Source: Erinaceus europaeus (lineage: Eukaryota > Chordata > Mammalia > Eulipotyphla > Erinaceidae). From it: DNA of 64,000 bases. The notes under the pieces are model-generated. The model was not told the origin of the DNA and did not search any database. It saw only the letters and a list, made by a program, of their open reading frames with translations. Location: positions 72,954,553 to 73,018,552 of the forward strand of contig NC_080168.1 of assembly GCF_950295315.1 (NCBI RefSeq). Reading direction: 5' to 3'. Made by a program: the position numbers and the translations under genes. Shown piece after piece: positions 130 to 57,513 of the stretch (positions are counted from its first letter, which is position 1; every line of letters begins with the position of its first letter).

Positions 130-698
130 GCCAAATATATTTGTTCCTTTTTTTGTTATTTGTAAAGTATTGTTCATATGGCTCTAAATGAGTGCTTTAA
201 ACTTTAACATATACTGAATGTCTTCAGTAATTATACACATCTATTTATCTGGATGCTTCCTCCTTTATATTTTTTAATTGCAGTAATGTTGGTTTAGTAC
301 CGATGTACCTGCTGCGTCACATGTGTGACATTAGCTGGCAAAGAGAAAGAGGCTTGTCTACATCCAGTGTTGTGACCTGTGAGCAACTGGGTGGTTGATA
401 GTCTAACACTTAACAACAGGGATCCAGACGGGATGCTGATAGCATTGACAAATACATAGAAAAGTCTATTATATAATTTAATCCACAAGTATCTTATATT
501 CATTACTCAATGAATGCTGTGTAAGATTTTAAATCAATTCTTTTCTCTAATATGATAGAAAAAAAAAGAATGCATATGTTATGGGTGAAGCATTTCACTC
601 CTTTTCACATATATTCTTTCCATGCCTACTAAGAAAGAAGAGATTCATATCATTCTCTAAACAGCTTATATTTCACATTGATTATTAAAATATCCCTT
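130..698. other. VWA8: Intron sequence, no feature recognised
   Basis: AT-rich sequence downstream of the last visible VWA8 exon. I see no exon, RNA gene or dated repeat in it. Confidence 0.5.
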
Positions 699-1119: not shown

Positions 1120-2290
1120 AAAAAGGTGGTGTATGAATGAAAATATTTACTCTGCGATTTAGGCAAATGGAAATACACTAAAAATATAATTTATGCTCAA
1201 AAGACAGATGGATTTCTCATTATTTTCCTTATTCATAATTTAAGAAACTAAGGGAAGTTACACTAAATTGCATTATTTATTACGTTCATTTTAGAAAGAA
1301 AGAAGATCTAGTCAGCAATTAAAATTTTACTTTGACCTAGGATTTATTTTTATTAATTAAAACATACATACAAAAGCAACTGAGGAAAATGTATCATAGT
1401 AACTTCAAACTTGTATCTCACAGGACAAACCTACTCAAATACAATGTGAAGAAAAGCCTTCCCTTTTCCTGCTGAACACCAAATTTAACTCTAACATAAA
1501 ACTAGTATTATTCATTTATTCATTAAATAATTATAAAACGTGTTAACACCACATGCTAATTTCAGTACCAGATAATGTATACACATAATTGGTGAAATCA
1601 TAAAAACCTTTGTCCAATACTAATACAAAAGTTAGAAGAAACAAAGAAAGGGAAAACACAATTCAAAACTTAGACTAGCTAAGGTCACTGCGGAGGAATC
1701 ACAGGAAAAAGAAAGGTAGGAATTGTAAGACTGGACAGGCCAATACCCCTGTGGAACTGGAAAATCTAAACCTAATATTCCTCTCTGTCCAGAGCCAAAG
1801 CCTCTAAAGGGGGAGGGGAGATGGGGTGAAAGGGCATTAGGGATTCACTGCACACCATTGGAGGAGCTGTCAGCTGGGTGTTAAGTAAGGGGTGGAGACA
1901 CCTATCATGGGGGAGATAAGAAACTGTACTCATGTGACAATTAATATACTGAAAATTATTACTTCCCCAACAATGTGAATAAACATATGTGTTGGGAAGT
2001 GCCTATTAACAGAGAAAAAAGAAAGTCATAATACAGAGCATGAGAAATGGAGTTAGTCGGAGAGGCCTTCTTGAGAAGGTTGTTGCTGAGTGAAAGTAGA
2101 TATCTGGGGATAAGGGTTTCAGGAATGGGATACACCAAGGCAGAGACCCTGTGACAAACATAGCTGGCACAGTGAAGGAGGAGTAAGAGAGCTGAGTGTA
2201 CAAGATAGAATGAATGATTTAGAGAGAAGTGCAGAGCAGTACAGGGAAGGAGGCAGATGAAAGGATGTGAAGACAATGTCTTATAAACAA
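1120..2290. other. VWA8: Intron sequence, possible ancient repeat
   Basis: No exon is seen. Part of 2040-2270 (GAGAAGG, GGCAGAGACCCTGTGAC, GAAGGAGG pattern) resembles an old mammal-wide repeat that I cannot name. The stretch near 1880-1975 is weakly like an L1 3' end. Confidence 0.3.
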
Positions 2291-2297
2291 TTTGCTG

Positions 2298-2455
2298 GGG
2301 GCCAGGAGGTGGAGTGGTCAAGTGAGGAATTAGACTCTCAAGTATGGGGTCCTGAGTTCGATTACAGTGTACATAGCCTTTGCAAGAGTGATGCTTTAGC
2401 TCTTTATCTCTCCCCCATTTTATCTTTATCTCTCTCCCATTTTATCTATAGACAG
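2298..2455 (+). mobile_element. SINE-C copy
   Basis: GGCCAGGAGGTGGAGTGG, then GACTCTCAAGTATGGGGTCC and TGAGTTCGATTACAG (B box), followed by the typical CTTTATCTCTCCC pyrimidine stretch. Confidence 0.75.
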
Positions 2456-2459
2456 ATAA

Positions 2460-3045
2460 CTTATTTCCCTGTGGTAGAGAAAGTAATCCTAACATTTTGA
2501 GTATATTGCTGTATAGGATATTAACCAGTTTCGACTAGATTAGCATATCTACGTTAATATTCTTTTGCCTGAGTTGCCGGTAATTATAAAACTGTCTTCA
2601 CATTTTCTTTTCAACTAATTTTAACATCTTACCCATTATTCATTAATCAATGGGTTGAATAAAGTTGGCTTGAAAAAAGTAAAAAAGAAAAGAAACTCTG
2701 TGTTTGTACAAGCATATGGTATATACATACTGTGCTGCCTCTTGCTTTTTAATTTATAATACAAATGGTAGATCATTATATCCACTATTATGACTTGTTG
2801 CTGCACTTAATATATTTTGAGAGTTTTTTAAATCAGTATGGAAGATGCTCCCCAGACCTTTTAATAATTGAAACATCCCAACATGTGGATATAATAGAAT
2901 TTCTTGATTCAGTCTTATTTGAATGGATATTTGGGAAGATTCAATGCTTTTTTTGCATTAAGTGATATTATATTGCCAGTTATTATAGTAAACATCACTA
3001 CGAAGGTATTATTTTCTTAGGCAAAAATTTTAATACTCCCAAGCC
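2460..3045. other. VWA8: Intron sequence, no feature recognised
   Basis: AT-rich and without recognisable motifs. The last 50 bases may be the decayed start of the Rep-E copy that follows. Confidence 0.4.
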
Positions 3046-3900: not shown

Positions 3901-3948
3901 GACAGTATTGCACTCAGATGATATTACTATTTTCATTCCTGTTCTTAC

Positions 3949-4068
3949 CTAAAGTGCCGAAGAAATCATTGCCCAGGAAAGGAAACCCAGGCCTGTTGGC
4001 CAGAACAATCATCCTAAAATCAGGATGGATCACTATGATATTTTCTCTTCCATTCACATTAGCAGAAT
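3949..4068 (-). CDS. VWA8: VWA8 coding exon (after Walker B exon)
   Basis: This internal exon of 120 nt is read on the minus strand from 4068 to 3949. The acceptor is TTTTTTCTAG before 4068 and the donor is GTAAGA after 3949. It supplies two bases of a split Asn codon, then 39 codons starting SANVNGREN and containing HPDFRMIVLANRPGFPF and GNDFFGTL, and it ends with one base of the next codon (phase 1). As I recall human VWA8, this follows directly on the ADGRRIVAN stretch, and the split-codon phase agrees with the exon at 7794-7929. The VLANRPG stretch lies where AAA+ modules place their sensor-1 strand. VWA8 is a large, reportedly mitochondrial AAA+ ATPase with a C-terminal VWA domain. No frameshift or stop is seen. 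The next downstream exon lies beyond the left edge. Confidence 0.93.
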
Positions 4069-4140
4069 CTAGAAAAAAAAATCTAATTACTGATGTTTAT
4101 AAGTTCTCAAGAATAACAAACTACAACTTTTAAAGTAACA

Positions 4141-4325: not shown

Positions 4326-4550
4326 AAAAAAAAAAAATGAAGCTGAGGTCTTAAAATCACTACTGAAATTGTCCCAGGTGCTCTCTGCCTATGAAAAGTG
4401 AAACTGACAAAGCTGGCTTCAAATATACTGACTTTTACTAATGATTGTCACTACAGACAACTTGATGATAGTGAACTTGGGTTTGTTGCCTGTAGATAGC
4501 CAGTGAAGTGCATGGCTTGATTCCAGATTCCAGAGCTATAAACACTGCTG

Positions 4551-7500
4551 TTCTTCTTCTAGCGTTTGCCCTTCTTCCGTAACCAGTCAACAGCGTCAGG
4601 TTGAGCCTGATGTAAAGTTTTGAGACCTCCTTTGAATCTGGAGAGTTGGCAGTCGTTGACTATGTGGGTCATAGTCTGTCTGTAGCCGCAGGGGCAGTTC
4701 AGGTCGTCTCTGGCTCCCCAGCGGTGGAACATAGCGGTGCACCGGCCATGGCCCGTTCGATAGCGATCAAGGAGGGCCCAATCATAACGAGCTAGGTCAA
4801 AGCCGGGTTGACGCTCGCAGGGGTCTGTGATGAGGTGTTTGTTCTTTACCTCAGCTGACTGCCAACTCTGTTTCCAAGAGTCTGGAACAGAGAAGTTCAG
4901 TGTAGGCATAGGGGACCAGATTGGATGACGAGACGTTGGACAGGGTGGGCGAAGATATCCACGTATATTGGCAGGTCCGGTCGAGCATAGACGTGGGAAA
5001 TGAACTTAGATGATGCCGCATCCCAACGAATATCTGGTGGGGCGATGTTGCTAAGAACTGGCAGCCATGGAAGCGGGGTGGAATGGATGGTTCCAGAAAT
5101 TATCCTCATGGAGGAATATAATTTGGAATCGACCAAGTGGACATGGGGGCTACGGAACCATACTGGGGCACAGTATTCTGCAGTGGAATAGCATAATGCC
5201 AGAGATGATGATCATAGTGTGGAAGCGCTCGCGCCCCATGAGGAGCTGGCCAGTCTTGCAATGATGTTATTCCTCGCGCCCACCTTTGCTGCAGTTTTTA
5301 TGAGATGTTCGTGAAATGACAGGGTGCGATCAAGAGTAACGCCAAGACAGACTGGCTGGGCTTCATGCCGGATTCTCATATCGTCAAGCTGCACATTAAG
5401 CTCACGCGAGGCCAAGGCATGGTGTAGATGGAAAACAGATGATACCGTTTTTGCAGTGCTAGGGATTAGTCACCATTTTTTACAGTAATCAGATATCAGA
5501 GACATGTCTTTCCTGTTTCCTCGAGGATGTCAAACTTGGATGCCTGAGTTGCACAGCAGATGTCATCGGCGTAGATGAACTTCCTTGAAGAAGTTTCTGG
5601 AAGGTCATTGATGTAAATATTAAATATCGTAGGTACCAGAACAGTGCCCTGGGGGAGGCCACTTGAGACAAGTCTCCATCTGCTAGACTTGTCACCCAGA
5701 TGCACCTGGAATCTTCTGTTTTGGAGAAGAAACGATATAGTGTTGGCCACCCATGGAGGCAGGCATCTTGAGATCTTGACTAGGAGACCACGGTGCCAGA
5801 CCGTGTCATAGGCTGCTGTGAGATCAACAAAGACAGCACCTGTCTTTAAATTATTCTGGAAACCATTTTCAATGTAAGTTGAGAGGGCCAGGGCTTGTTC
5901 GCAGGTAGATCTTCCTGGGCGGAAGCCAGCTTGGGCGGGTGATAGGAATTTCTCTGTAAGAGGAGAAATACGTGACAGAAGCAGCCACTAAGGAGTTTGT
6001 AACACACAGAGAGGAGAGAAATTGGTCTATAGCTGGCGGCCAGTGTTGGGTCTTTCTTTGGTTTCAAAACTGCTATTATCTTCGCATGACGCCAAATTTT
6101 GGGCATAGATTTGAATTCCAAGATGTGGGACAGGAATGTAGTGAGCCACTTCTTTGCCACGGGGCCCAAGTTAAGGATGAGTTCTGGGGTGATGTTATCA
6201 TAGCCAGCAGCCGTTCCCGGTTTAAGCCTCTACAAAGCGTCTTCCAGTTCAGACAGTGTAAAGGGAGAGAGTTTTGGAGATGGACAAGATAAACGGAAGT
6301 GGGATGACCACTCATGGGAAATTTCTCTTTTCCAGACTGGGTCGATCTTAGCACGTCCAACTTGAGTTAGGTGACTGGCCACTGAGTTTGGAGATACGGG
6401 AGGATGGGAGACGGGAGAGGGTTGGCTACCGGCACCCAGACTATGAAGAAGCTTCCAGGCCTTCCTTCTTGAGTGGGTGAAGTTCAGACTTTCCATGAGT
6501 TGTTGCCAGCAGGCTTGGCGTGCTGCATCCAGGGAGGCAATGAGATGGTCGGCCACATCTGGGTCGCCCAACTCATCATACTGCTTTAGTAGTTGCTCAC
6601 ATTCAGCATCTAGACAAGGCGTATAGTTAGCACGTCTCCCACGAGGAATAGCTTGGGAAGCTGCTTTGAAGATGGCTTGGCGGAAACGCCTGTAGGAATC
6701 TTCAGAGGGGATAGAGTTAATTGGAATTGCAGGAATAGATAGGTTGGTAAGATCACTGAACAGATGCCAGTTTGCTTTCCAAAAGTTCCATCTTAGTTTC
6801 TCCGAGCACAGAATCAGTGGGAGCTGGAGACCAATGTGGATGATAGCTGGGCGGTGATGACTGTGCGGGAAGATCTTGAGAACTTGTCTCGTAGCGGGAA
6901 AGGCTTGGCCGTTGACTGTGCTAATCCAGCACAGGTTGGGTGATGAGTCTTTATTCCATCTAGCACTGTGAAAAGAGCCTGGCTGTTTAGGATTGTATAA
7001 TAGGGAGAGGTCATTCGCTGAAGCCCAGTCGGCTAAGATAGAGCCTTCAGCACGAGTGGAGGAATATCCCCAGTCTTGGTGATGACTATTAAAGTCTCCA
7101 ACGTAAACAGCTGGGTGATTCGGGCTAGGCAGGACCTCATTATCCCATGAGGCACTGGGAGGCTTATATACGTTGACGAGCTGAATAGTTCCAATATAAT
7201 GGAGTCGTAGAAGGTCGAAGAGGCCGTATGGTAAACGTCCGCAAGATACGATTTAGTGTAGATGGCTCGGCTGTGTTTAGGATGGAGATTATAGCATATT
7301 AAATCGAATCCACTGATGGTGAATCGAGCAGCTTCATCGACTGCTATATGTGTTTCTTGTAGGCAGATAACATCTGCCTGATGCTGTATCGCCAATTGAC
7401 CAATAAGAACGCGTTTGGCAAAGGATAGCCCCTCAACATTAAGTTGGAGGACTCGAAGAGCAGGACCAACAGCTTGAAAGCTGACAGGAGCTGCTTGTTG

Positions 7501-7594
7501 CTGGCTTTGAAAGTGACTGGGATTCAGTAGGCTAGGAAGGATCGTCAGTTTCCCCAATGAATGGTTACTCATGGGATGCACCATGGGAAGGTCG
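4551..7594 (-). mobile_element. Jockey-superfamily non-LTR retrotransposon, truncated
   Basis: This minus-strand LINE of about 3.04 kb has an endonuclease and a reverse transcriptase. Its 3' end is unusual: the coding frame runs to the terminus and stops at the TAG at 4559-4561, immediately followed by a short (AAG)n tail. The 7-mer ACTGCTG lies on both sides (4544-4550 and 7595-7601), consistent with a target-site duplication. No upstream gag-like ORF is present, so it is probably 5'-truncated. The protein resembles Jockey-type elements I know from ticks, spiders and other invertebrates rather than mammalian L1, L2 or CR1. It lies in sense orientation in the VWA8 intron between exons 7794-7929 and 3949-4068 and supplies most of that intron's length. 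Confidence 0.88.
4559..7594 (-). pseudogene. Broken Jockey-like EN-RT polyprotein gene
   Basis: The coding region is split over several frames, so it is not functional. In order on the minus strand: an apurinic-type endonuclease N-half (about 7594-7033, with VLQLNVEG near the start and VICLQETH near 7360); a linker region (6571-6230, GDPDVADHLI); the reverse transcriptase opening (about 6169-5990, SYRPISLLSVCYKLL); the RT core (5750-5496, GLPQGTVL and FIYADDICC, with the catalytic YADD intact); a thumb region (5415-5212, LGVTLDRTLSFHEHL); and a C-terminal region (5136-4559) with CPCGYRQTMTHIV, a Cys/His motif typical of the family. Shifts between these blocks and several stops show decay. The intact-looking motifs suggest moderate age. 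Confidence 0.85.
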
Positions 7595-7601
7595 ACTGCT
7601 G

Positions 7602-7742
7602 TGAGGGTAGATAACACAGTGGTTATGTAAAGAGGCTCTCATGCCTGAGGCTCCAAAGCCCTAGGTTTCATCCTTCTTTACCACCATAAACCAGAGCTGA
7701 GCAGTGCTAAGGTAAAAAACAAAAAACAAAACAAAACAAGCA
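7602..7742 (+). mobile_element. SINE-D copy next to the Jockey-like element
   Basis: The sequence carries ATAACACAGTGGTTATGTAA, then CTCATGCCTGAGGCTCC, CCTAGGTTTCATCC and an A-rich tail of AAAAAC repeats. This is the SINE-D pattern. The Jockey-like insertion begins right at its 5' boundary, so the retrotransposon entered at or next to the SINE start. Confidence 0.75.
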
Positions 7743-7793
7743 AGCAAAATACATTCCGTGAACTAAAGGAAAAGTTGCATTGTTAATACTCAC

Positions 7794-7929
7794 TTGCAAT
7801 AATGCGTCTTCCATCTGCTAGAATCATTTCCCCACTTTCTACTAGAGTTTTTAAAATACAGGTAACGTTTGTTGGGGCTTTGTCTGCCTCATCAACTACA
7901 AGAATATGGCCCAGCTTTACTGCTTTAAC
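7794..7929 (-). CDS. VWA8: VWA8 coding exon with Walker B
   Basis: This exon of 136 nt is read from 7929 to 7794. The acceptor is CTGTCTTTCAAG and the donor is GTGAGTAT. It starts in phase 0 with VKAVKLGHILVVDEADKAP, continues NVTCILKTLVESGEMILADG, and ends RRIIA plus one base. The hydrophobic run ILVV followed by DEAD is the Walker B box, which coordinates magnesium and activates water for ATP hydrolysis. Compared with human VWA8 as I remember it, only a few conservative changes occur (for example ESGEM for ENGEM). The phase joins the exons at 9336-9411 and 3949-4068 exactly. The intron on its 3' side holds the Jockey-like insertion at 4551-7594. Confidence 0.96.
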
Positions 7930-7999
7930 CTTGAAAGACAGGACATTTATCATTAGAAAAATGAAAGTAAGCATCTTTAAAATGTAACCACTCACTGCA

Positions 8000-8990
8000 C
8001 TAAATTTATAATAGCTGGTTTTATTTTATAGCGATATTATCACAACACATTACAACAGGAGATAATTTATGGATCTTCACGAAAAGCTTCAGATAGTTAC
8101 TGATCTGCCCACTCTACAATAATCACTATATTTCACTTTGGCATCAGAACTATTCCTATAGTACTAACGTTCATAATATTTCATATCCTAAGACTGGGAA
8201 GACTTAAAACAAGTTTACAAATCATGAGATGTCATATCAATAATCGCTAACAGATGATTGTATTCATTATAGTTCTTCTTCTTCTAGCGTTCTAAGAGAT
8301 AGTTTAGATCAAAAGGGGGCTACTTTTATTAGTAAGTTGTTTGGGGACCTGATTTTAGGGGAGATGCCATGAAAAAAAAGTAATCAGCATTATACTGATT
8401 TAATGAGTTTTACTGAGATATAATCTAGTCTTGGAAACTAATGAGAAGAGGGAAAGAAAAACTAGAAAAGGGCCTTGGGCTACTAGATAAGAAGTGACAT
8501 TATGAAAAGAAAGGTAAAAGGTAGGAATGTTTATTTTTAAAAATAATTTTGGGGCATCAATTGAGAGGGGATACTCAATGAATTTAAATGTGAACCGAAA
8601 GACCTAAGTCACAAGAGATTTCTCATAATACAAAGTGAAGCATGTATATCCTCCTTGAATTGCATAGTTTGACAATTTCAGGAATTTACTAAGAAATAGA
8701 TGATTCCCTCTGTCAGAAATATCTTATTCCATTTCCATAAAAAAAAGTTTCTTTTTTTTTTTAATCACAGGGTCAGAATAAGTTTAAAAGGACAACATGT
8801 AGTCTGCAGTCCCATACACAATATCTCTGTTCAAGAACAGCAAGTCAGAGTCAACCTGGGTAAGTCAAAAGAACCCTCTAATCACTAGCATTGGGACAAC
8901 AGAGGCACTCATGATGGTTCATCTGTGCCACTGCTAAAAAGGATGTATCTACACAAAGGACATGCCTGGCAAGGTGGGCTCTCTTGGGTC
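8000..8990. other. VWA8: Intron sequence between two VWA8 exons
   Basis: No repeat family is recognised apart from the 16-bp motif at 8276-8291. The stretch 8960-9060 (TGGAAAGCTGGGGAGTATAC) is weakly like an L1 3' UTR. Confidence 0.4.
8276..8291 (-). other. 16-bp match to the Jockey-like 3' terminus
   Basis: TTCTTCTTCTAGCGTT is identical to the 3'-terminal bases of the retrotransposon at 4551-4566, including the stop codon and the start of the tail. It may be an extremely short 5'-truncated copy. Chance cannot be excluded because half of it is a TTC repeat. Confidence 0.35.
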
Positions 8991-19864: not shown

Positions 19865-20470
19865 TTATATTACAGAATTACATGTCGACAGGGGTTTGAA
19901 GCCACACCATTCCCACCACCAGAGTTCTTAATTCTTCAATCTCCCCACTGCAATCCACCACATTTCCCCTAAGGTTGTAGACATGAGCCAACCATCATCT
20001 TTAAAACTATCTGTCCACATTTATACATAGTTGCTCCTTTCTTTTCTGATTCACTCCTCTCTTCCCCTTCAAGCCACACATGACAACATAACTACCTCCA
20101 TATGTCCCTTTCCTTTTCCTTTTGTCTCTCTGGGTGCTGATGGAGCTGGAGTTCAGAGCCCTCTTCTTCTATCACGTCTCCCCTGTTGGGAGTATGGATC
20201 AAGGTTGTTTTTGGGGAGCAGAAGGTAGGAGTTCTGATTTCTGTAATTGCTTCTCTGCTGAGCATGGGTGTTGACAGGTCGACCCATATCCCCAGCCTGT
20301 TTCTATCTCTCTCTAATGGACCAGAGCTTTGGAGAGGTAAGGGTCCAGGACACATTGGTAGGGTCATCTGCCCAGAGAAGTCAAGGCTAATTTTGGTGTA
20401 TGGTGTTAATTGGGGGTTGAGTTTCACTTTTCTAATTGGCTGTCCAATTCTGCCAATACTATTGCCAAAT
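19865..20470 (-). mobile_element. Rep-E 3' module, longer 3' variant
   Basis: Read on the minus strand: CTTCTCTGGGCAGATGACCC, ACCAATGTGTCCTGGACCC, AGAAGCAATTACAGAAATC and CCTACCTTCTGCTCCCC as in other E3 copies, but about 200 bp extra (around 20000-20165) before the shared end GGTGGTGGGAATGGTGTGG and an A-rich tail. It marks a subfamily with an insertion or a different 3' part. Confidence 0.75.
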
Positions 20471-22985
20471 AGTACTATTGCCTAAAACTACTATTTGTTA
20501 AAGAGACTTTCTTTTTCCCAATGGGTATATTTGGCCGCTTTGTCATATGGACTCTCTGTCCTATTCCATTGATCCATATGACCATTTTTGTTCCAATACC
20601 ACACTGTTTTGATTACTACTGCTTTGTTGTATAACCTGAAGTCTGATATTATGATGCTTCCATTTTTCTTCTTTTTCCTTGAGTGCTTCTTGATTTTTTT
20701 AAGTTCCACACAAATTTTTGAATTATTTGTTCAATTTCCGTGAAATATGTCATTGGGATTTTAATAGGGATTGCATTGAACCTATAGGTTGCTTGTGGCA
20801 GAATTGCCATTTTAAGGATACTTATTCTCCTAATCCATGAAGAGGGAATGTTCTTCCATTTTGTTGTGTTATCCTCTATTTCTTTTAATAGTGTCTTATA
20901 GTTTTCTTTGAAAAGGTCCTTTACATCTTCTGGTAGATTTATTCCTAGGTATTTAATCTTCTTGGGTTCAATTGTAAATGGCATTGCTTCCTTCAGTTTC
21001 ATTTCTTCTGGCCCATCCTTTGTATAAAGAAATGCCACAGATTTATGGGTATTGATCTTGTAACCTGCTATCTTACTGAATTTATTGATAATTTCAGGTA
21101 GTTTCTTGGCAGTTTCCAGGGTCCTCTAGGTATACCAGCATATCATCTGTGAATAATGAGTTTAACTTCATCCTTTCCAAATGTCTGATTGTGATAGCAA
21201 GGACTTCTAGGACTATGTTGAATAAAAATGGTGAGAGTGGGCACCCTTGTCTAGTTTCTGATTTTAGGGGAAAGACTTTCAATTTTTCCCCAATGACTAT
21301 GACGTTAGCCATGGGCTTATCATATATAGCCTTTTATGTTAAGGAATTTTCCTTCCACTCCCAGTTTCTCGAGGACCTTTATCATAAATGGGTGTTGCAC
21401 CTTGTTGAATGTTTTTTCTGCATCAATTGATAAAATCATCATTTTTTTTCTTTTTGTTGATATAGTGGATTACATTTATTGATTTACAGCTGTTGAACCA
21501 TCTGTTTCCCCGGGATGAATCCCACTTGATCTTGGTGGATTATTCTCTTAATATGTTGTTGTATTTGACTGGCCAAGATTTTGTTGAGGATCTTTGCATC
21601 AATGTTCATCAGGGATATAGGTCTATATTTTTCTTTTTTGGTGGGGTCCTTTTCTGCTTTGGGGACCAGGATGATGTTAGCCTCATAGAATGTGTTTGGG
21701 AATGTTCCGTCTTCTATTTTCTGGAAGAGTTTGAGGAGGATGAGTGTTAGTTCTTCCTTGAATGTTTTGTAAAATTCATTAGTATAGCCATCGGGGCCTG
21801 GGATTTTGTTCTTGGGTAGGTTTTAGATTACTGATTCAATTTCTTTATTAGTAATTGGGCTGTTAAGTGTATCTACTTCCTCTTGTGTCAAGGATGGCAG
21901 TTGGCATGATAAGAATGTGTCCATTTCTTCTAAGTTGTCAAATTTGGTTCCATACAAATGTCCATAATATTCTTGCATAATCTTTTGACTCTGCCTCATC
22001 TGTTGTAATATCTCCTCTTTCATTTTTGAGTGATTTTACCATAGCAGTCTCTCTCTTTTTTTATTGATGAATGTAGCTAGTGGCTATTTTATTTTATTTA
22101 TCCTTCAAAGAACCAGCTCTGGGTTTCATTAATCTTCCTCATGGTCTTCTTGTTTTCTATTTCACTGATTTCTGCTCTGATTTTAACTATCTCCTGTCTC
22201 CTGCTGACTGTTGGGTCTTTTAGTTGCTCCATTTCTAGTTGGTTGAGGTGGGATGTTAGATAGTTTAGTAGTGTTTTCTCCCGTTTATTAATGCGGGCCT
22301 GTATCGCTATGAACTTCCCTCTCAGCACTGCTTTTGTTGCATCCCATAGGGTCTGGTAACTGGTTTCTTCATTTGCATTGGTATCGAGATATTTCTTAAT
22401 TTCTTTTTTGATCTCTTCAATGACCCATTTATTGTTCAGCAGGATATAGTTTAGTCTCCAGGCTTTGCGGAAATTTCTTTTCCTTTTTTGGTTGATTTCT
22501 AGTTACATGTTTTCGTGGTCTGAGAGGACGCATTCTATAATTTTAATATTTACATATTTGTTCAGACACTCTGTGTTGTCCAGCATATGGTCCATTCTTG
22601 TAAATGTTCCATGTGTACTTGAGAAGAATATGTATCCATTACTTTTGGGAAATAAAGTTCTGTATATATCTATTAGGTCCATTTCATCTATGGTTTCATT
22701 TAAATTCACTATTTCTCTACTGATTTTTTTTGTCCAGATGTTCTGTCTCTTGCTGAGTGGTGTACTGAAATCTCCTATTATTATTTTGTTGCTATCAATG
22801 TCTCCCTTGAGTTCAGTAAGTGTTTTTATATATTTGAGTGCTCCTAAGTTTGGGGCATATATACTTATGATGGTTATATCTTTTTGTTGAATTGATCCTT
22901 TAGCCATTATGTAATGTCCTTCTCTATTGCTGATTACTTTTTTCTGCCTGGAAGTCTACTTTATCAGAGAATAGGATACCTGTCC
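20471..22985 (-). mobile_element. L1 element, ORF2 remnant
   Basis: A 2.5-kb antisense L1. On the minus strand: endonuclease part (22907-22503, with IISIYAPN and IIGDFSTPLS), the helical linker (22328-22098), an RT block (21312-21094, [20 protein letters not shown], with FTDD in place of the catalytic FADD) and the ORF2 C-half (21038-20490). Multiple stops and shifts make it dead. Its 3' end is missing and it abuts a Rep-E copy in the same orientation. Confidence 0.93.
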
Positions 22986-23074
22986 CTGCCCCCCGCCCTT
23001 TTTTTAGTTATTAGCTGGAACATCTTGCTCCAACCTCTTATATTCAGTTTCTGTTTGTCTTTTCTTTGTTTATT

Positions 23075-24660
23075 TTATTTTATTTATTTATAAAATGGAA
23101 GCATTGACAAAACCATAGAATAAGAGGGGTAAAACTCCACACAATTCATACTACCAGGTCTCCATATTCCATCCCTTTGCCTGATAGCTTTCCTATTCTT
23201 TAGCCCTCTGAGAGTATGGACCCAAGGTCATTGTGGGAAGCAGAAGGTGAGAGGTCTGGGTTCTGTAATTGCTTCCCTGCTGAACATGGGCATTAACAGG
23301 TCAATCCATACTCCCAGCCTGCCTCTCTCTTTCCCTAGTAGGGTGGGTTTCTGGGGAAGCAGAGCTGCAGGACATATTAGTGGGGTTGTCTGTCTAGGAA
23401 AGTCTGCTCTGCATCATGTTAGCATATGGAACCTGGTGACAGAAAAGAGAGTTAACATGCAAAGCCAAACAAATTGTTGAAGAATCATGAACTTAATGGC
23501 TGGAATAGTGCAGATGAAGAGTTGGAGGGGGGGGTCTCCATTTTGTAGATAGCTATTAGTCATATTTTAGTTATATTCCAAAGGGCCTGTAGCTATACTA
23601 GTGGGTTTTTTTTTCTGTTTTTTTTTTTTTTTTCCCCTCCTGAGCCTGAAATCTGATATGCAGGTGGATCCAAGTTATTGCCTGGGGAGATGATGTCATG
23701 GCTGGAAAAAGGACCAGAAAGCTGGATCAGGGAAAAGAGTAGCTCCCTAATATGGGAAAGGGATATAAATATTGTTGACTGTAAACCCCATCGATCTGAT
23801 TTGGTCTGGGGCCCATATTCAGCTTAGGAGCCTATGTGACCTCTGCATCCCTGTAGATCTGAGCTAACATTCTGTGGTCATGAGTAGGAACATTCCAAGC
23901 TGCCCCAACATTGACCCATCTTCCTCAGGTGTAGCACAGAGTATGTTGTTCATCCTCCCTCTGGAGGATGGAACATTTTCTACCATTGTTGATCCAAGTT
24001 GAGGGTAAGGTACTATGGGAGGCCCACAAAGGGGTCTATTTTGTTATTACTGATAGAGATGACCTATAACACTGGAGAGAGGGATTTGAGGCCTAGGTCC
24101 ATCATGTCTATTTGGGAAGCTCAGGACCCCCCAAACAGGGACCCAGCTGATGGGGTGGCCTGATTAAAGTTATTAAAGTATGCCAGTCTCCTGCCCTTAT
24201 TCAGCTTTTGCAGTCTTTGCTTTGCTAAGGTTAGCTTTTGGAGTGAGTGAGAGAACTATAATAGGAAGTAGGTGAGGAGGGTATCTAAGTCTAATTAGAT
24301 ACTGTTGCATTAGGAATTTTATACTGACTTACTGCAGACTGTTGTGTACTTTTGCTTTCAGGTATATATTTTGCCCTAGTTTATGGATAAGTGTTAACAT
24401 ATGCTCTGTCTTATGGGAGCTGGTCTATATCTAGGTTTGGGGACTTTGTTAGGAAGTGAACTGCCTGGAATGGAATTAGAGAATCCTATGAAAGGAAAGG
24501 TCTCACCGGAGTAATGAGGGTGAAGGGTTGACATTCCATGCCTGACATCTCTGGACACAGTCTGAAGTGAAGCATGCTGAGGTGGTACTCATTGTGTTGA
24601 TTAGGTTGGGATCAGCAGATGCAATATAATTTCGTATGAATTGAGAGAAGGATGCAGGAA
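23075..24660 (-). mobile_element. Rep-E, longest copy (E5 plus E3)
   Basis: Read on the minus strand from 24660: the E5 module (TTTCCTGCATCCTTCTCTC, GACTGTGTCCAGAGATGTC, GAGACTGGCATACTTTAATA, CACCTGCATATCAGATTTC), an A-rich break near 23620, then the E3 module (GGCCCTTTGGAATATAAC, ACAATTTGTTTGGC, TCCTAGACAGACAACCC, CACCTTCTGCTTCCC) and a TATAAATAAATAAAAT tail. It shows that E5 and E3, elsewhere found apart, are one unit of about 1.6 kb. No ORF is convincing. Confidence 0.8.
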
Positions 24661-25233
24661 AGTGAGGACGAATTAGAGACAACTAAAAAAGAAGTAAGAG
24701 ATCTCAAAAATATATTAAGAGATGCTGAAAACAACAATAGAGACCTATGGGATGCCTTCAAAAGAAACAATATACACATTATTGGCTTACCAGAGGAAGA
24801 AAGAGAGGGAGAGGAAGAAAGCATTCTTCAGGCCATAATAGCTGAAAACTTCTCTAGTCTAGACAACATCAAAGACATACAGATTCAAGAAGCCCAGAGG
24901 CTCCCAAACAGAATTAACCCAGACCTAAAGACACCAAGACACATCATATTTAGAATGGAAAGGAATAAGGATAAAGAAAGGATCCTGAAGGCTGCAAGAG
25001 AAAAACAAAGAGTCACCTACAGAGGAAAACCCATAAGATTAGCAGCAGACTTCTCCACACAAACACTAAAGGCCAGAAGAGAATGGAAAGATATATACCG
25101 AGTTCTCAATGAGAAAGGCTTTCAACCAAGAATACTATATCCTGCTAGACTGTCATTCAGACTAGATGGAGGCATCAAAACCTTCTCAGACAAGCAACAG
25201 TTGAAGGAATCACTATCACCAAGCCTGCCCTGA
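24652..25233 (+). pseudogene. L1 ORF1 protein, C-terminal part
   Basis: 193 codons open, against roughly 330-380 for a full mammalian L1 ORF1. Visible are the end of the coiled coil (DELETTKKEVRDLKNILRD), the RNA-recognition domain (NIHIIGLPEEE) and the C-terminal domain (RHIIFRM, KERILKAAREKQRVTYRGK, FQPRILYPARLSF). The coiled-coil start and the N-terminus are missing, so it cannot make a normal ORF1p trimer. Confidence 0.92.
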
Positions 25234-25315
25234 AAGAAGTTCTGAAAGGTCTTCTATAAACAGTCAGACCATCATAAATAGGACATATATCAGAAGACTA
25301 TAAAACTCTACAAGA

Positions 25316-28300
25316 ATGGCATTAAAATATCTTAAATCTTTGATATCAATAAATGTCAATAGCCTGAATTCACCTATTAAAAGACACAGAGTAGGAAGAT
25401 GGATCAGAAAATACAACCCAACAATATGCTGTCTACAGGAAACCCACCTAACTCAACAAGACAAACATAGACTTACAGTGAAAGGATGGAAAACTATCAT
25501 ACAAGCCAATGGCCCACAAAAAAGGGCAGGGACAGCTATTCTCATATCTGACATGATAGACTTTAAAATAAATAAGATTTAAAAAGATAGGAATGGACAC
25601 TATTTAATGCTCAGAGGATCAGTCAATCAAGAGGAATTCACAATTATTAACATCTATGCACCCAATGAGAAGCCAACTAAATATATCAAATGTGTACTGA
25701 AAGAGCTAGAGCAATATATTAACAGCAACACAGTCATAGTAGGGGACTTCAACACCCCACTCTCTCAACTTGACAGATCATCCAGGCAGAAAAATCAATA
25801 AAGACTTGAGGGAGCTGAATGAAGAGATAAACTAGAACTATTGGACATTTTCAGAGTCATTCATCCCAAGAAACTGGAATACACATTTTACTCAAATCCA
25901 CATGGGTCATTCTCAAGGATAGACCATATGTTAGGCCACAAAGACAGCATCAGCCAATTCAAGAGCACTGAAATCATCCCAAGCATCTTCTCAGACCACA
26001 GTGTAATTAAACTAACACTTAACAATCAACAAAAGATTAGTAATAATCCCAAAATGTGGAAGATCAACAGTACACTTCTTAAAAACCTCTGGGTCAAAGA
26101 GGAAATCAAGGAAGAAATCAAAATGTTTTGAGAGTTCAATGAAAATGAAGACACAAGCTATCAAAATATTTGGGACACAGCTAAGGCAGTACTAAGAGGG
26201 AAGTTCATAGTTATACAAGCACACATTAGGAAACAAGAAAAAACACAAATAAAAAGCCTGATTGCACATCTTAAAGACCTAGAAGTAGAAGAACAAAGGA
26301 ACCCTAAAGCAACCAGAAGAACAGAACTCACTAAAGTTAGGGTAGAAATAAATAACATTGAGAATAAGAAAACCATACAAAAGATCAACAAATGTAAATG
26401 TTGCTTCTTTGAAAGATTGAACAAAATCGACAAACCTTTAGCCAGACTCACAAAACAAAAAAGGGAGAAGACCCAAATAAATCGGATAGTAAATGAAAGA
26501 GTAGATATCACAACAGACACCACAGAAATTCAACATATCATGCGAGGCTTCTATGAACAACTATATGCCACCAAGCTAGAGAACCTAGAAGAAATGGACA
26601 AGTTCCTAGATACCTACCAACTTCCAAAACTAAGTAAAGAAGAAGTGGATAGCATGAACAGGCCCATCACAGCCAGCAACAGTTAGCAAAAATCTCCCCA
26701 AAAATAGAAGTCCTGGACCAGATGGTTTTACAAATGAATTCTACAAAACCTTCAAAGAAGAACTAATACCTCTACTTTTAAAACTCTTCCAGAAGACTGA
26801 AGACACTGGAATACTCCCTGCCAGCTTCTATGAAGCTAACATCACTCTGATACCAAAAGCAGACAGGGACACAACCAAAAAAGAAAACCACAGACCAATA
26901 TCTTTGATGAACATAGAGGCTAAAATACTGAATAAAATTGTAGCCAACCGGATACAGCAGTATATTAAAAAGATTGTTCATCATGACCAAGTGGGGTTTA
27001 TCCCAGGCATGCAAGGTTGGTTTAATATATGTAAATCAATCAATGTGATCCACTACATCAACAAAAGCAAGACCAAAAACCACATGGTCATATCAATTGA
27101 TGCAGAGAAAGCCTTTGACAAAATACATCCTTTTATGATCAAAACACTAAAAAAAATGAGAATAGATGGAAAATTCCTGAAGATAGTGGTGTCTATATAT
27201 AGCAAACCTATAGCCAATATTATACTCAATGGTGAAAAACTGGAAGCATTTCCACTCAGATCAGGTACTAGACAGGGCTGCCCGCTATCACCATTACTAT
27301 TCAACATAGTGTTGGAAGTTCATGCCATAGCAATCAGGCAGGAGCAAGGAATTAAAGGGATACAGATTGGAAGAGAAGAAGTCAAATTCTCCCTATTTGC
27401 AGATGACATGATAATATACACAGAAAAACCTAAGGAATACAGCAAGAAGCTTTTGGAAATCATCAGGAAATACAGTAAGGTGTCAGGCTACAAAATTAAC
27501 ATTCAAAAGTCAGTGGCATTCCTCTATGCAAACACTAAGCTAGAAGAAAGTGAAATCCAGAAATCAATTTCTTTTACTATAGCCACAAAAACAATAAAAT
27601 ATCTAGGAGTAAACCTAACTAAAGAAGTGAAAGACTTGTATACTGAAAATTATGAGTTACTACTCAAGGAAATTTAAAAAGACACAAAGAAGTGGAAAGA
27701 TATTCCATGTTCATGGGTTGGTAGAATTAACATCATCAAAATGAATATACTACCCAGAGCCATATACAAATTTAATGTTATCCCCATAAAGATCACAAGC
27801 ACATTTTTTAGCAGAATAGAACAAATGCTACAAATGTATATCTGGAACCAGAAAAGACCTAGAATTGCCAAATCTATCTTGAGAAAAAAGAGCAGAACCG
27901 GAAGCATCACACTCCCAGATCTCAAACTGTATTATAGGGCCATTGTCATCAAAACTGTTTGGTACCGGAACATGAATAGACACACTGACCAGTGGAATAG
28001 AACTGAGAGCTCAAAAGTGAGCCCCCACACCTATGAACATCTAATCTTTGACAAAGGGGCTCAGACTATTAAATGGGGAAACCAGAGTCTGTTCAACAAA
28101 TGGTGTTGGAAGCAATGGGTTGAAACATGCAGAAGAATGAAACTGAACCACTGTATTTCACCAAATACAAAAGTAAATTCCAAGTGGATCAAGGACTTGG
28201 ATGTTAGACCACAAACTATCAAATACTTAGAAGAAAATATTGGCAGAAATCTTTTCCATATAAATTTTAAAGACATCTTCAATAAAACGAATCCAATTAC

Positions 28301-28970
28301 AAAGAAGACTAAGGCAAGTATAAACCTATGGGACTACATCAAATTAAAAAGTTTCTTCACAGCAAAAGAAACCACTACCCAAACCAAGAGACCCCTCACA
28401 GAATGGGAGAAGATCTTTACACACCATACATCAGACAAGAGTTTAATAACCAACATATATAAAGAGCTTGCCAGACTCAACAACAAGACAACAAATAACC
28501 CCATCCAAAAATGGGGGGAGGACTTGGACAGAATATTCAGCACAGAAGAGATCCAAAAGGCTGAGAAACACATGAAAAAATGCTCCAAGTCTCTGATTGT
28601 CAGAGAAATGCAAATAAAGACAACAACGAAATACCACTTCACTCCTGTGAGAATGTCATACAACAGAAAAGGGAACAGCAGCAAATGCTGGAGAGGTTGT
28701 GGGGTCAAAGGAACCCTCCTACACTGCTGGTGGGAATGTCAATTGGTCCAACCTCTGTGGAGAACAGTCTGGAGAACTATCAGAAGGCTAGAAATGGACC
28801 TACCCTATGATCCTGCAATTCCTCTCCTGGGGATATATCCTAAGGAACGCAACATATCCATCCAAAAAGATCTGTGTACACATAGGTTCTTGGCAGCACA
28901 ATTTGTAATAGCCAAAACCTGGAAGCAACACAGGTGTCCAACAACAGATGAGTGGCTGAGCAAGTTGTAA
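25316..28970 (+). pseudogene. L1 ORF2 (EN-RT-Cys), interrupted
   Basis: The frame starts MALKYLKSLISINVNSLNS. The endonuclease shows CCLQETHL, IINIYAPN, VIVGDFNTP, RIDHMLGHK and FSDHSVIKL, but is split by stops near 25580 and 25800. The reverse transcriptase (26904-27677) shows [29 protein letters not shown] and [13 protein letters not shown] with intact catalytic Asp pair. The C-terminal part (27741-28970) has a CX3CX7HX4C knuckle ([18 protein letters not shown]). Normal length is about 1,275 residues. It encodes no functional product. Confidence 0.95.
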
Positions 28971-29355
28971 TCTATATACACAATGGAATACTACTCAGCT
29001 GTAAAAAATGGTGACTTCACAGTTTTCAGCCGATCTTGGATAGACCTTGAAAAAATCATGTTGAGTGAAATAAGTCAGAAACAGAAGGATGAATATGGGA
29101 TGATCTCACTCTCAGGCCGAAGTTGAAAAACAAGATCAGAAAAGAAAACACAAGTAGAACCTGAAATGGAATTGGCGTATCGCACCAAAGTAAAAGAGTC
29201 TGGGTTGGGTGGGTGAGGAAAATACAGGTCCAAGAAGGATTCAGAGGACCTAGTGGGGGTTGTATTGTTATATGGGAAACTGGGGAATGTTATTTAAGTA
29301 CAAACCATTGTACTTTCTGTTTAATGTAAAATATTAATTCCCCAATAATAAAAAA

Positions 29356-37850: not shown

Positions 37851-38214
37851 GCACAGGTTTTATAGGACATCTTCTGAATGCAGGAGTGTTCTGTGAAGGC
37901 CCCTACCCAAGTGGAAGTTCCAGTGGCTGATCTTTCCTGAGAGTCTGTGAATCATGTACACTTGTATAGTTCTTTACTATGGTACTGGTTACTCCATCTC
38001 AGCAGAGGCATAAACCTAAGAGGCAGCTGATTTTTTTTCTGTTCTGTTTTTATTATCACTCACAGATTTATTTTGGCCTTCTACTCTACTCTTTCTTCTT
38101 TGGTCCACCAATTTTGTATTTGTTTCTCCTTCGTTTTTCTCTCAAGTACATGTCATCATTCAGTGATAGGGTTCAAACCAGAAGCCTGTTAACTCAACCC
38201 AGTGCTTTCACCAT

Positions 38215-38400
38215 GGAGATTTATTTATTTGTTGGACAGAGACAGAGAGAAACTGAGAGGGAAGGAGAAGATAAAGAGGGAAAGAGAAAGGTGCCTGCAG
38301 CACTGCTTCAATGCTTGTGAAGGTTTCATCCTACAGATGAAGGCTCTTGAAACTTGGTCTTAGTGCATGGTAACATATGTGCTCAACCATGCGGGCCAAT
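38215..38400 (-). mobile_element. SINE-B copy
   Basis: Antisense: TTTATTTATTTGTTGGACAG, TGCCTGCAGCACTGCTTC and GTGCTCAACCATGCGGGCC head. Confidence 0.82.
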
Positions 38401-38529
38401 GCCTAGTCTCCACAAAGTAGTTTTTAGTGGCCCATTATTTGGCATGTCCTTGATCTCTCTCCTGGCCCCTACCTCAGCTTTCTCTTTCTCTCTGTCTATT
38501 TTCTGCTTAAGATTTTTTTTTTTAAAGTT

Positions 38530-38655
38530 CTGGGGCAGAGAGTAGATAGTATAATGGTTATGCAAAAGACTCTCATGCCTGAGGCTCCAAAATCCCAGGT
38601 TAAATCCCCTACACCACCAGAGCTAAGCAGTGCTCTGATTTAAAAAAAAAAAAAA
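38530..38655 (+). mobile_element. SINE-D copy
   Basis: GGGGCAGAGAGTAGATAGTA, TAATGGTTATGCAAAAGAC, CTCATGCCTGAGGCTCC and a poly(A) tail that runs into the purine tract. Confidence 0.9.
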
Positions 38656-39176
38656 AGTAAAGAAAGAAAGAAAAGAAAAGGAAGGAAAGGAGGGGGAAAG
38701 AAGAGAGAAGGAAGGAAGGAAGAAGGAAGGAGAAGAAGGGAGGGGAGGGGAGGGGAGGGGAGGGGAGGAGAGGGGAGGGGACGGGAGAGGAGAGGGGAGG
38801 GGACGGGAGAGGAGAGGGGAGGGGAGGGGAGGGGAGAGGGAAGGGGAGGGGAGAGGGGAGAGGGGAGGGGGAGAGGGGAGGGGAGGGGGGAGAGGGGAGA
38901 GGGGAGAGGGGAGGGGAGGGGAGGGGGGGAGGGGAGGGGGGAGAGGGGAGGGTGGAGAGGAGAGGAGAGGAGGGGAGGGGAGGGGGGAGAGGGGAGGGTG
39001 GAGAGGAGAGGAGAGGAGGGGAGGGGAGGGGAGGGGAGAGGGGAGGGGGAGAGGGGAGGGGGGGGAGAGGGGAGGGGAGGGGGGAGAGGGGAGGGTGGAG
39101 AGGAGAGGAGAGGAGGGGAGGGGAGGGGAGGGGAGGGGAGAGAGGAGAGGAGAGGAAGGAGAGGAAGGAAGGCAGG
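38656..39176 (+). repeat. (GGGGA)n / (GGAA)n purine tract, about 520 bp
   Basis: Almost pure A/G on the plus strand, starting as AAAG/GGAA units and becoming GGGGA units. Larger blocks containing GGGTGGAGAGGAGAGG recur at about 38951, 38997 and 39094, so part of it grew by longer duplications. All three minus-strand frames stay open for about 190-200 codons purely because of composition. It lies 1.8 kb downstream of the VWA8 Walker A exon; the pyrimidine strand is the VWA8 sense strand. Confidence 0.98.
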
Positions 39177-39181
39177 CTTTG

Positions 39182-39392
39182 GAGGCCAGGCAGTGGCACA
39201 CCTGGTTAAGTACACACACTACAATGCTCAAGGACCCAGGTTCAAGACCCTAGTCCCCATGTGCAGCAGGAAAGCTTCATGTGTGGTAAAGTAGAGCTGC
39301 AGTTCTCTCTCTCCCTCACTCCCTCTCTACTTTCTCATCCCCTTTCAATTTCTGTCTCTATCCAATAATAAGTAAATTAAATTTAAAAGTTC
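39182..39392 (+). mobile_element. SINE-B copy
   Basis: AGGCCAGGCAGTGGCACACC head, ACCCAGGTTCAAGACCC B box, CATGTGCAGCAGGAAAGC and CTGTCTCTATCCAATAATAA. Confidence 0.88.
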
Positions 39393-44122: not shown

Positions 44123-45005
44123 CCTTTCCCCCACCCCCCACCTGCACATTCCTGGCTATCTGGGGTTATACTATTGTTTGCTTTCATTCTTAGTCCCTGT
44201 CCATTCTCTCCTGATTTTTCCTAATAAACTTCTATTCATTTCACTGATGAAAAAGTATCACAATATAGTAGATGTAAGAAATATTAAGTAAACTGGCACA
44301 ACAACTGACTACTTAATAAGACAGAGGCCTGAGGCCCACTGAAACAGGGGTAGGCAGTTAAGGTCTATCCTACAGACAATCAATGAAGTCACTGCCTAAA
44401 GAAGTCCAGTGTGAGCTTATTTTGAAGTTCTAGCAGGGGAATGCAGCTATTCATATACCCTTGACTGAAGACCGGTCTGTCTCTATTTGGGGAAGGCCAT
44501 CCTCTTTGGCTGAGCACACAGCTTCAGGAGAGACACACATGGAGCAGTGAGGGAGGAAGGGGAGCAACTAATCCCCTAGAGTCAGAATAAGGCTAGGATA
44601 TGTAAGGAATAGTCAATGTTTTGAGTGGTGTGAGAGAGAAAATATCTAAGATGAAGAAATAGAAGCTGGATCTGAGAAAGCAAAATTCTACAAGTCAAGG
44701 TAAAGAAGCAGGATTTTATTACCTTGTGATGGGGGACCATCAAGAGATTTTCAGCAAAGAAGTGACATGAACTCATATATATCATAAGAGATGACTTTGG
44801 TTTAGGTGTGGAGAGTGAGTAACAGGAATAGTATGTGCAAAGGCTGTGGGTAACAATAACCCCAGATAGGCCAAATAGAAGGGAACAGGACAAAGGCTAC
44901 AGAGAGTGGGGGAAAGGGTGGGAAGAAATAAGGCCCAACTGATAAAGTCTAGCTCTGGCAAAACTTTGAAAGCTACTCAGAAGAGTCTGGGCCATTTTCT
45001 TTATA
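44120..45005. other. VWA8: Intron sequence, possible ancient repeat
   Basis: No exon is seen. 44690-44990 (AGCAGGATTTTATTACC, AAGAAGTGACATGAACTC, GAAAGGGTGGGAAG) resembles an old mammal-wide repeat that I cannot name. Confidence 0.35.
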
Positions 45006-56916: not shown

Positions 56917-57513
56917 GTGAAGACTTTGCCTACCTATGCACTATGGTCTTCTCTTTCTACTTACGAAGAGGTTTGCCAAAGCCTCTACTGTTTCATCATG
57001 AGACAGTTACTCTGTCTCTGGAACATTTTGCTCTGGGCCAAACTTTGTTTCCCTGACTGGGAACTTTGGTTTCTTATGACCGGGATCATAGAGCTTGGGA
57101 GATGCACGGAGATTTCTCCTTGGACTTTCTGGATTCCCTCTCCCATGTTTCCTGAGGAAAAGGACTACATTTTGCTCCAGGCCACAGTTTGGTTCTTTAT
57201 GACCGTGATCGTAGACCTTGGGATATGCATGGGGATTTCCCCTGGGACTTTCTGGACTTCTTCTCGAATGTTTCCCATGGAGAAGGACTACTCTAGTTTG
57301 AGGAACATTCTCGAGTACCCTGGCAGTTCCCAAGTATGGAGACATGTGGTTAGTTCTACTCTCCTGATTGGATTCTTTCTTCAATGGGAAGACGCTTTTA
57401 AAAATGGGTGCCTGAAGCAATCCAGCAGGAACAGTCAGAAACACCCTAAATGGAATTTCGAGGACCTTTTTGGACTAGGTCGCCCTCCGGGGATTCTTAA
57501 TCCTACATGGTGA
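56917..57513 (+). other. Open frame over a 144-bp duplication
   Basis: A 198-codon open frame in the leader of the LTR element. A unit beginning ACATTTTGCTC (57023) repeats at 57167, period 144, so the predicted protein repeats MTGIIELGRCTEISPWTFW-like text as MTVIVDLGICMGISPGTFW. No similarity to a retroviral protein is recognised, and the opposite strand is also open (57444-57007), so coding is doubtful. Confidence 0.4.

What the first reader, a model, noticed from the sequence alone, without database searches (positions are those of the whole stretch)
4551..7594. Arthropod-type Jockey LINE inside a mammalian gene
Mammals are not known for Jockey-superfamily elements of this type, yet a 3-kb EN-RT copy sits between two VWA8 exons. 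The motif set (FIYADDICC, SSWGAS, CPCGYRQTM, the stop-then-(AAG)n end) matches elements I recall from ticks and other arthropods. Hedgehogs carry heavy tick loads, so horizontal transfer is plausible. The surrounding VWA8 exons and hedgehog SINEs argue against contamination.
Basis: partly seen in the sequence, partly recalled or inferred. Interest (0 to 1): 0.87.

Follow-up and report, generated by a model that had tools for sequence, protein, structure and literature searches.

The report
Known hedgehog Vingi retrotransposon, broken copy
This is a broken, nearly full-length copy of a jumping gene whose end sequence occurs about 30,000 times in the European hedgehog genome; it is most likely the Vingi family reported in hedgehogs in 2011, whose likely arrival from another animal is already proposed in print, so it is real but not new.

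Summary
Window 4552-7594 (minus strand) is a 3.04-kb non-LTR retrotransposon with endonuclease and reverse-transcriptase domains, flanked by a perfect 8-bp repeat (ACTGCTGT). It ends in a stop-then-(AAG)n tail and lies in an intron between two exons of an AAA-domain gene (VWA8 by recognition). It is not contamination: the host is Erinaceus europaeus (a protein from the same contig matches that species at 100%), and the family's 16-base 3' end occurs 29,835 times in the 2.72-Gb assembly (reversed control 0). The copy is dead: four frame changes, three stops. Sampled copies differ by about 3.5%; internally deleted derivatives are frequent.

The anatomy fits the hedgehog Vingi family of Kojima, Kapitonov and Jurka (2011), which a later paper lists among likely horizontal transfers. 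There is no room for a Jockey-type ORF1 and no RNase H match. Alignment to Repbase Vingi-1_EE was not possible. Named relatives (39-42% identity) are a pseudoscorpion, an aphid, a sandfly and a sea squirt. Verdict: ordinary and already known.

The parts
4552..7594 (-). Nearly full-length (by inference about 14-17 bases short at the 5' end), inactivated Vingi-type LINE, 3,043 bases
   Evidence: EN and RT Pfam matches; flush 8-bp repeat; 40 scored genomic candidates whose main match is 94-100% identical, the window copy itself included
7595..7602 (.). Target-site duplication copy at the element's 5' end, ACTGCTGT on + strand
4544..4551 (.). Target-site duplication copy at the element's 3' end, ACTGCTGT on + strand
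7033..7638 (-). Stop-to-stop frame that runs in from the flank and holds the start of the element's protein and the first part of the endonuclease (ALRVLQLNVEGLS...)
   Evidence: Exo_endo_phos 2.4e-4, 21.4 bits, below its curated cut-off of 24.5; translation
6230..7252 (-). Longest open frame, 340 aa: rest of endonuclease and linker
   Evidence: Exo_endo_phos_2 1.7e-11
5846..6229 (-). Frame after an in-frame stop: linker and start of RT (RLKPGTAAGYDN... to SYRPISLLSVCYKL)
   Evidence: no Pfam match alone; aligns with P0024
5496..5987 (-). Reverse transcriptase core with FIYADDICC
   Evidence: RVT_1 1.2e-21
5212..5469 (-). Region after the RT core with SSWGAS
   Evidence: no Pfam match alone; aligns with P0024
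4559..5005 (-). C-terminal region with the CPCGYRQTM...C cysteine motif, ends in a stop; no RNase H match
4552..4569 (-). Conserved 3' end: stop codon followed by an AAG-repeat tail
   Evidence: TAGAAGAAG end seen in the 24 end-mapped copies; 16-mer CAAACGCTAGAAGAAG 29,835 times genome-wide
7783..8025 (-). Stop-to-stop frame holding the upstream flanking exon (AAA_5; VWA8 by recognition); the exon ends before GTGAGT
   Evidence: AAA_5 2.8e-5, sequence
3914..4096 (-). Stop-to-stop frame holding the downstream flanking exon (ENIIVIHPDFRMIVLANRPGFPFLGNDFFGTL)
   Evidence: no Pfam match alone; joined to the previous exon AAA_5 rises to 31.1 bits

Best explanation
The sequence is a dead, nearly full-length copy of an endonuclease-reverse transcriptase LINE family whose 3' end occurs 29,835 times in the Erinaceus europaeus assembly; it is most likely the hedgehog family published as Vingi-1_EE and would have been inserted into this intron by target-primed reverse transcription. 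Shown here: endonuclease then RT, carried in one protein of about 1,000 aa in the relatives, no RNase H match, a common 3' end with an AAG tail, short repeats across the ends of part of the copies, variable 5' truncation, and frequent internally deleted derivatives. Inferred: the endonuclease nicks the target, the RT primes at the element RNA's 3' end, and short derivatives are mobilised in trans by full-length ones. Taken from print: the family probably entered a hedgehog ancestor horizontally.
For: Domains. Flush 8-bp repeat. Genome search with the RT piece: 11,938 first-look candidates, 150 scored, identity 93-100%, the window copy included. DNA search: 10,470 candidates, 40 scored; the main match of each is 94-100% identical, 32 of the 40 start at query base 1, and five extra short pieces are 87-97%. 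Of 24 copies with mapped ends, 11 share an exact repeat of 7-12 bases between the two ends, 10 of them close to both ends and 9 above the control maximum; 552 mismatched pairs give mean 4.8, 95th percentile 6, maximum 8. Pairwise substitutions: window copy against the 24 others mean 4.2% (3.5-4.7), others among themselves mean 3.5% (2.4-4.6). Five of the 8 loci align only by a piece within bases 1-128 (66-128 bases) and the last 40-63 bases; I take these to be the kind of derivative that PMC3183009 lists for hedgehog as Vingi-1N3_EE. Tree: window copy, four genomic copies and P0024 form one clade at 100/100. Host identity. Published hedgehog Vingi: reference entries and passages in PMC3183009, PMC3391268, PMC5753468, PMC3747384.
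Against: No Repbase or Dfam sequence was available, so identity with Vingi-1_EE rests on host, anatomy, derivatives and copy number, not on alignment. The 2011 paper itself is not held; its abstract is recalled. The tree has no labelled Jockey, Ingi, I or R1 reference, so the clade name is not proven here. In one search, 13 of 24 copies share no exact repeat longer than 6 bases, within the control range; some have a mis-set or N-filled 5' end, others have no such excuse. The window's own 8-bp repeat only equals the control maximum; its weight comes from lying flush at both ends.
Confidence: 0.93

Rival explanations
1. It is a Jockey-clade element acquired from ticks or another ectoparasite, distinct from the published hedgehog Vingi family.
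For: Most named relatives are arthropods (pseudoscorpion, sandfly, aphid). The African hedgehog repeat table has an 'I-Jockey' class of 4,476 copies and 2.232 Mb and does not use the word Vingi (PMC12026660 Table 1), so at least one annotation uses a Jockey label in hedgehogs.
Against: No tick is named among the 120 listed relatives or, though both lists are capped and mostly unnamed. An ascidian is equally close (40%). No room for a separate ORF1. With 29,835 3' ends and short internally deleted derivatives, a second unpublished family with the traits of the published one is improbable.
Confidence: 0.04
2. The family is an old mammalian Vingi lineage inherited vertically that re-expanded in hedgehogs, with no horizontal transfer.
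For: A Vingi fossil, X12_LINE, is listed in human and one pre-amniote Vingi protein fossil is reported (PMC5753468; PMC9004415). Low divergence among copies dates the amplification, not the arrival.
Against: PMC3183009 names hedgehog Vingi as a likely horizontal transfer; I recall from the 2011 abstract that no related elements were found in the other mammalian genomes searched. I could not search other mammals.
Confidence: 0.15
3. Contamination or a mis-assembly placed a foreign sequence in the hedgehog assembly.
For: Only the base composition: 49.0% GC in the element against 39.4% in the rest of the window; other 1-kb windows of the same sequence also reach 47-50%.
Against: 29,835 exact 3' ends across the assembly, control 0; flush target-site duplication; diverged copies at many chromosomal places.
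Confidence: 0.005

Closest known systems
Vingi-1_EE, hedgehog Vingi family (Kojima, Kapitonov and Jurka 2011; paper not held, seen as reference entries)
   Same: Same host, EN-RT, no RNase H, short non-autonomous derivatives, low divergence among copies (family traits partly recalled)
   Different: Nothing found that differs, but no letter-by-letter comparison was possible
Ingi clade (recalled)
   Same: EN-RT non-LTR element; the 2011 title calls Vingi Ingi-related
   Different: Ingi carries RNase H (recalled); none matched here
Jockey clade (recalled)
   Same: APE-type endonuclease and RT, short duplications, 5' truncation
   Different: Jockey has a separate gag-like ORF1 (recalled); the hedgehog element has no room for one
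RTE/BovB, another horizontally spread LINE of mammals (recalled; PMC6036668 seen only as a listing)
   Same: EN-RT element with proposed horizontal spread
   Different: A different clade and a separate case; not compared by sequence here

Membership tests
Non-LTR retrotransposon mobilised by target-primed reverse transcription | Endonuclease followed by reverse transcriptase | tested here: met
   PF14529 and PF00078 in the window and in one protein in relatives P0001, P0002, P0034
Non-LTR retrotransposon mobilised by target-primed reverse transcription | Short target-site duplications, fixed 3' end, variable 5' truncation | tested here: met
   Flush 8 bp in the window; 11 of 24 end-mapped copies with 7-12 bp against a control maximum of 8, the other 13 within the control range; common 3' end, many 5' starts
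Vingi | No RNase H domain after the RT (recalled) | tested here: met
   No RNase H match in the 6 element ORFs at E 0.01 nor in P0001, P0002, P0024, P0034 at E 1
Vingi | Hedgehog host with non-autonomous internally deleted derivatives (partly recalled) | tested here: met
   Host Erinaceus europaeus; 5 of 8 loci are internal-deletion derivatives; Vingi-1N3_EE listed in print
Vingi | RT tree position in Vingi, related to Ingi | not testable with these tools
   No labelled Repbase references held; the tree only groups it with unnamed relatives (91/94, not starred) apart from L1
Vingi | High identity to Repbase Vingi-1_EE | not testable with these tools
   Repbase not available
Jockey | Separate gag-like ORF1 before the EN-RT ORF (recalled) | tested here: not met
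   Copies L041 and L043 have repeats abutting a start 15-17 bases upstream of window-copy base 1, and the endonuclease match begins about base 146 of the window copy
Jockey | RT tree position inside Jockey | not testable with these tools
   No labelled Jockey reference

The most novel reading that the evidence does not exclude
The hedgehog family jumped recently from an arthropod or other invertebrate lineage that is not yet sampled under a name: its nearest full-length relatives, 53-55% identical over the whole protein, occur only on short contigs without a named host in the two searches made, so the donor group could now be found.
Probability: 0.3. Interest if true: 0.35.

Novelty: already known. 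Interest (0 to 1): 0.12.

Why it matters
The open point that remains is the donor, which this finding does not solve.

Tried and rejected
Tick origin: looked for in the names (120 rows listed of 500 and of 618 hits, most without a host name); no row names a tick. This is weak evidence of absence.

Naming the host of the 53-55% relatives: a second search from P0002 again returned named hosts only at 43-47% identity to P0002 (pseudoscorpion, aphid, psyllid, ascidian).

Clade test by tree: 25 rows, namely 18 chosen by me of the 143 proteins then held (one of them, P0035, cut into two rows), four genomic copies, the window RT and a window L1. The trimming step did not cut rows to the RT core, the L1 and P0035 N-terminal rows have very long branches, and the root is only a midpoint. 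It supports one hedgehog clade and nothing finer.

End mapping: 24 of the 35 loci L010-L044, chosen by hand. Dropped: five cut by the locus end (L010, L015, L018, L019, L032), five split or only partly aligned (L017, L027, L029, L031, L033), and L022, which I left out without reason; a look at L022 shows AGTGCCTG near both ends, so leaving it out did not favour my reading. One of the 11 repeats of at least 7 bases (L042) is not close to both ends.

Age: each copy is about 1.7-2.5% from a common source if the pairwise figures are split. With recalled mammalian rates of roughly 2-4 per thousand million per site and year that is a few to about twelve million years. This is inference, and the sample is biased to copies most like the window copy.

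A very short second tail at 8278-8289 was noted but not resolved.

Full report
What is there. The region 4552-7594, read on the minus strand, is a 3,043-base non-LTR retrotransposon. Pfam finds an endonuclease of the Exo_endo_phos_2 kind on the ORF at 6230-7252 (1.7e-11) and a reverse transcriptase on the ORF at 5496-5987 (1.2e-21). The copy is inactive. Aligned with a 944-aa frame of another genomic copy (L039), its coding region changes frame four times and has three in-frame stops; P0024 and P0001 give the same picture where they cover it.

Its ends. A perfect 8-base direct repeat, ACTGCTGT, abuts both ends of the element (4544-4551 and 7595-7602). The 3' end is the stop codon followed by AAG units. 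The flanks are two exons of an AAA-domain gene in the same orientation as the element. The first ends at a GTGAGT donor, and joining the two raises the AAA_5 score from 24.6 to 31.1 bits. The name VWA8 is recognised from memory, not from a call.

Host. A taste-receptor ORF on the same contig, C85, is 100% identical over 305 aa to an Erinaceus europaeus protein, and that protein's listed contig length (134,025,529) is close to that of C85 (134,020,778). Every other listed hit is 62% identical or less, so the host is the European hedgehog or something very near it.

Family. A search of the 2.72-Gb assembly with the RT piece gave 11,938 first-look candidates. The 150 that were scored, the window copy included, lie at 93-100% identity, with open frames of up to 944 aa. 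A DNA search with the whole element gave 10,470 candidates, 40 scored. The main match of each of the 40, the window copy included, is 94-100% identical; 32 of the 40 begin at query base 1, and 8 run on to the 3' end in one piece. Five further short pieces are 87-97% identical. The 16-base 3' end CAAACGCTAGAAGAAG occurs 29,835 times exactly (14,908 + 14,927), against 0 for the reversed pattern. That count includes truncated copies and derivatives. Contamination is excluded.

Copy anatomy. I mapped the ends of 24 copies, chosen by hand from the 35 loci L010-L044 (the dropped rows are listed under Tried and rejected). They share the 3' end and have many different 5' starts. Eleven of the 24 have an exact shared repeat of 7-12 bases between the two ends, ten of these close to both ends. 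In 552 mismatched pairs the mean is 4.8, the 95th percentile 6 and the maximum 8, so nine of the 24 exceed every control pair. The other 13 copies show 2-6 bases, within the control range. Copies L041 and L043 show repeats abutting a start 15-17 bases upstream of the first base of the window copy, so I take the window copy to be nearly full length. The endonuclease match begins about base 146, which leaves no room for a separate first ORF.

Divergence. Substitutions between the window copy and the 24 others average 4.2% (3.5-4.7), and the others differ among themselves by 3.5% on average (2.4-4.6). The sample is biased towards copies like the window copy. It fits amplification within the last several million years, by inference with recalled rates.

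Derivatives. Of the first eight loci found by the tail 17-mer, five (L002-L006) align only by a piece within the first 128 bases (66-128 bases long) and by the last 40-63 bases, two (L001, L007) are 5'-truncated copies, and one (L008) gave no alignment at E 1e-5. Short derivatives are listed for hedgehog as Vingi-1N3_EE, with 311 copies under 1% divergence, in a table of PMC3183009 (passage). That its N families arise by internal deletion is recalled from the 2011 abstract.

Literature. [quoted passage not shown] I saw it as a reference entry in PMC3183009, PMC3391268, PMC5753468 and PMC3747384. PMC3183009 names Vingi in hedgehogs as a likely horizontal transfer (passage). [quoted passage not shown] PMC9004415 counts one pre-amniote Vingi fossil in human (passage). 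PMC7561263 finds Vingi rare and mostly fixed in the green anole (passage). PMC12026660 gives 4,476 'I-Jockey' copies for the African hedgehog (table); the word Vingi was not found in its main text. That the Vingi clade lacks RNase H, and that no other mammal of those searched carried it, I recall from the 2011 abstract.

Relatives. One search returned 500 proteins, 120 listed. Apart from P0024 (87% over 53% of the query), the best full-length ones, P0001 to P0014, are 53-55% identical over 96-99% of the query and have no named host. Named hosts are Cordylochernes scorpioides (39-42%), Phlebotomus papatasi (41%), Uroleucon formosanum (40-41%) and the ascidian Phallusia mammillata (40%). One search, from P0002, added Diaphorina citri (43% to P0002). 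No listed name is a tick. In the tree the window copy, four genomic copies and P0024 form one clade at 100/100. The link to the unnamed 49-55% group has support of 91/94, below the starred level.

Mechanism. Shown: endonuclease and RT domains, short repeats at the ends of part of the copies, a common 3' end, 5' truncation, and derivatives that keep both ends. Inferred from established LINE biology: target-primed reverse transcription made this insertion, and full-length copies drive the short ones in trans. The direction and the donor of the horizontal transfer are not shown here.

Verdict. This is a degraded member of what is most likely a published hedgehog LINE family. The Jockey label and the tick source are not supported by what I could test.

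Noticed in passing
window 8278-8289 (about 8271-8291): A second copy of the Vingi 3' end (CTTCTTCTAGCGTT preceded by more CTT units) lies 3.7 kb from the first with no element body found by BLAST: either an extremely truncated insertion or chance.
   Followed up: partly
window 44346-44584 (-) and 277-410 (+): Rfam matches: a 7SK copy at 90.2 bits and a SNORA17 copy at 56 bits; whether they are pseudogenes was not tested.
   Followed up: no
window 20000-29000: Strong opposite AT skews and ORFs that I recognise as L1-like: two copies in opposite orientation, the right-hand one with 339- and 430-aa frames (no family search made).
   Followed up: no
window 38600-39300: Long GA/CT-rich simple-sequence tract (GC skew +0.44 in 38001-39000) that opens long frames on both strands.
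   Followed up: no
G000:C96:43121872-43125130: An internally deleted derivative appears to be inserted inside a longer copy of the same family.
   Followed up: no
G000:C102:41703142-41706105: A copy split into two pieces in opposite orientation (bases 1-1967 and 2080-3043), like the inversions that twin priming leaves in L1 (reading by analogy). G000:C4:133520260-133522307 hints at the same with only a 37-base second piece.
   Followed up: no
P0035 (Cordylochernes scorpioides, 1282 aa): An annotated pseudoscorpion protein whose first 330 aa or so are a different RT fused to a Vingi-like EN-RT, perhaps a gene-model artefact over adjacent elements.
   Followed up: no
P0024: A 582-aa frame on a short ENA contig falls inside the hedgehog clade (100/100): hedgehog DNA in a sample, or another host with a nearly identical element; the host could not be looked up.
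   Followed up: partly
window 56917-57513: Overlapping open frames on both strands containing an imperfect tandem duplication of about 41 codons, unidentified.
   Followed up: no
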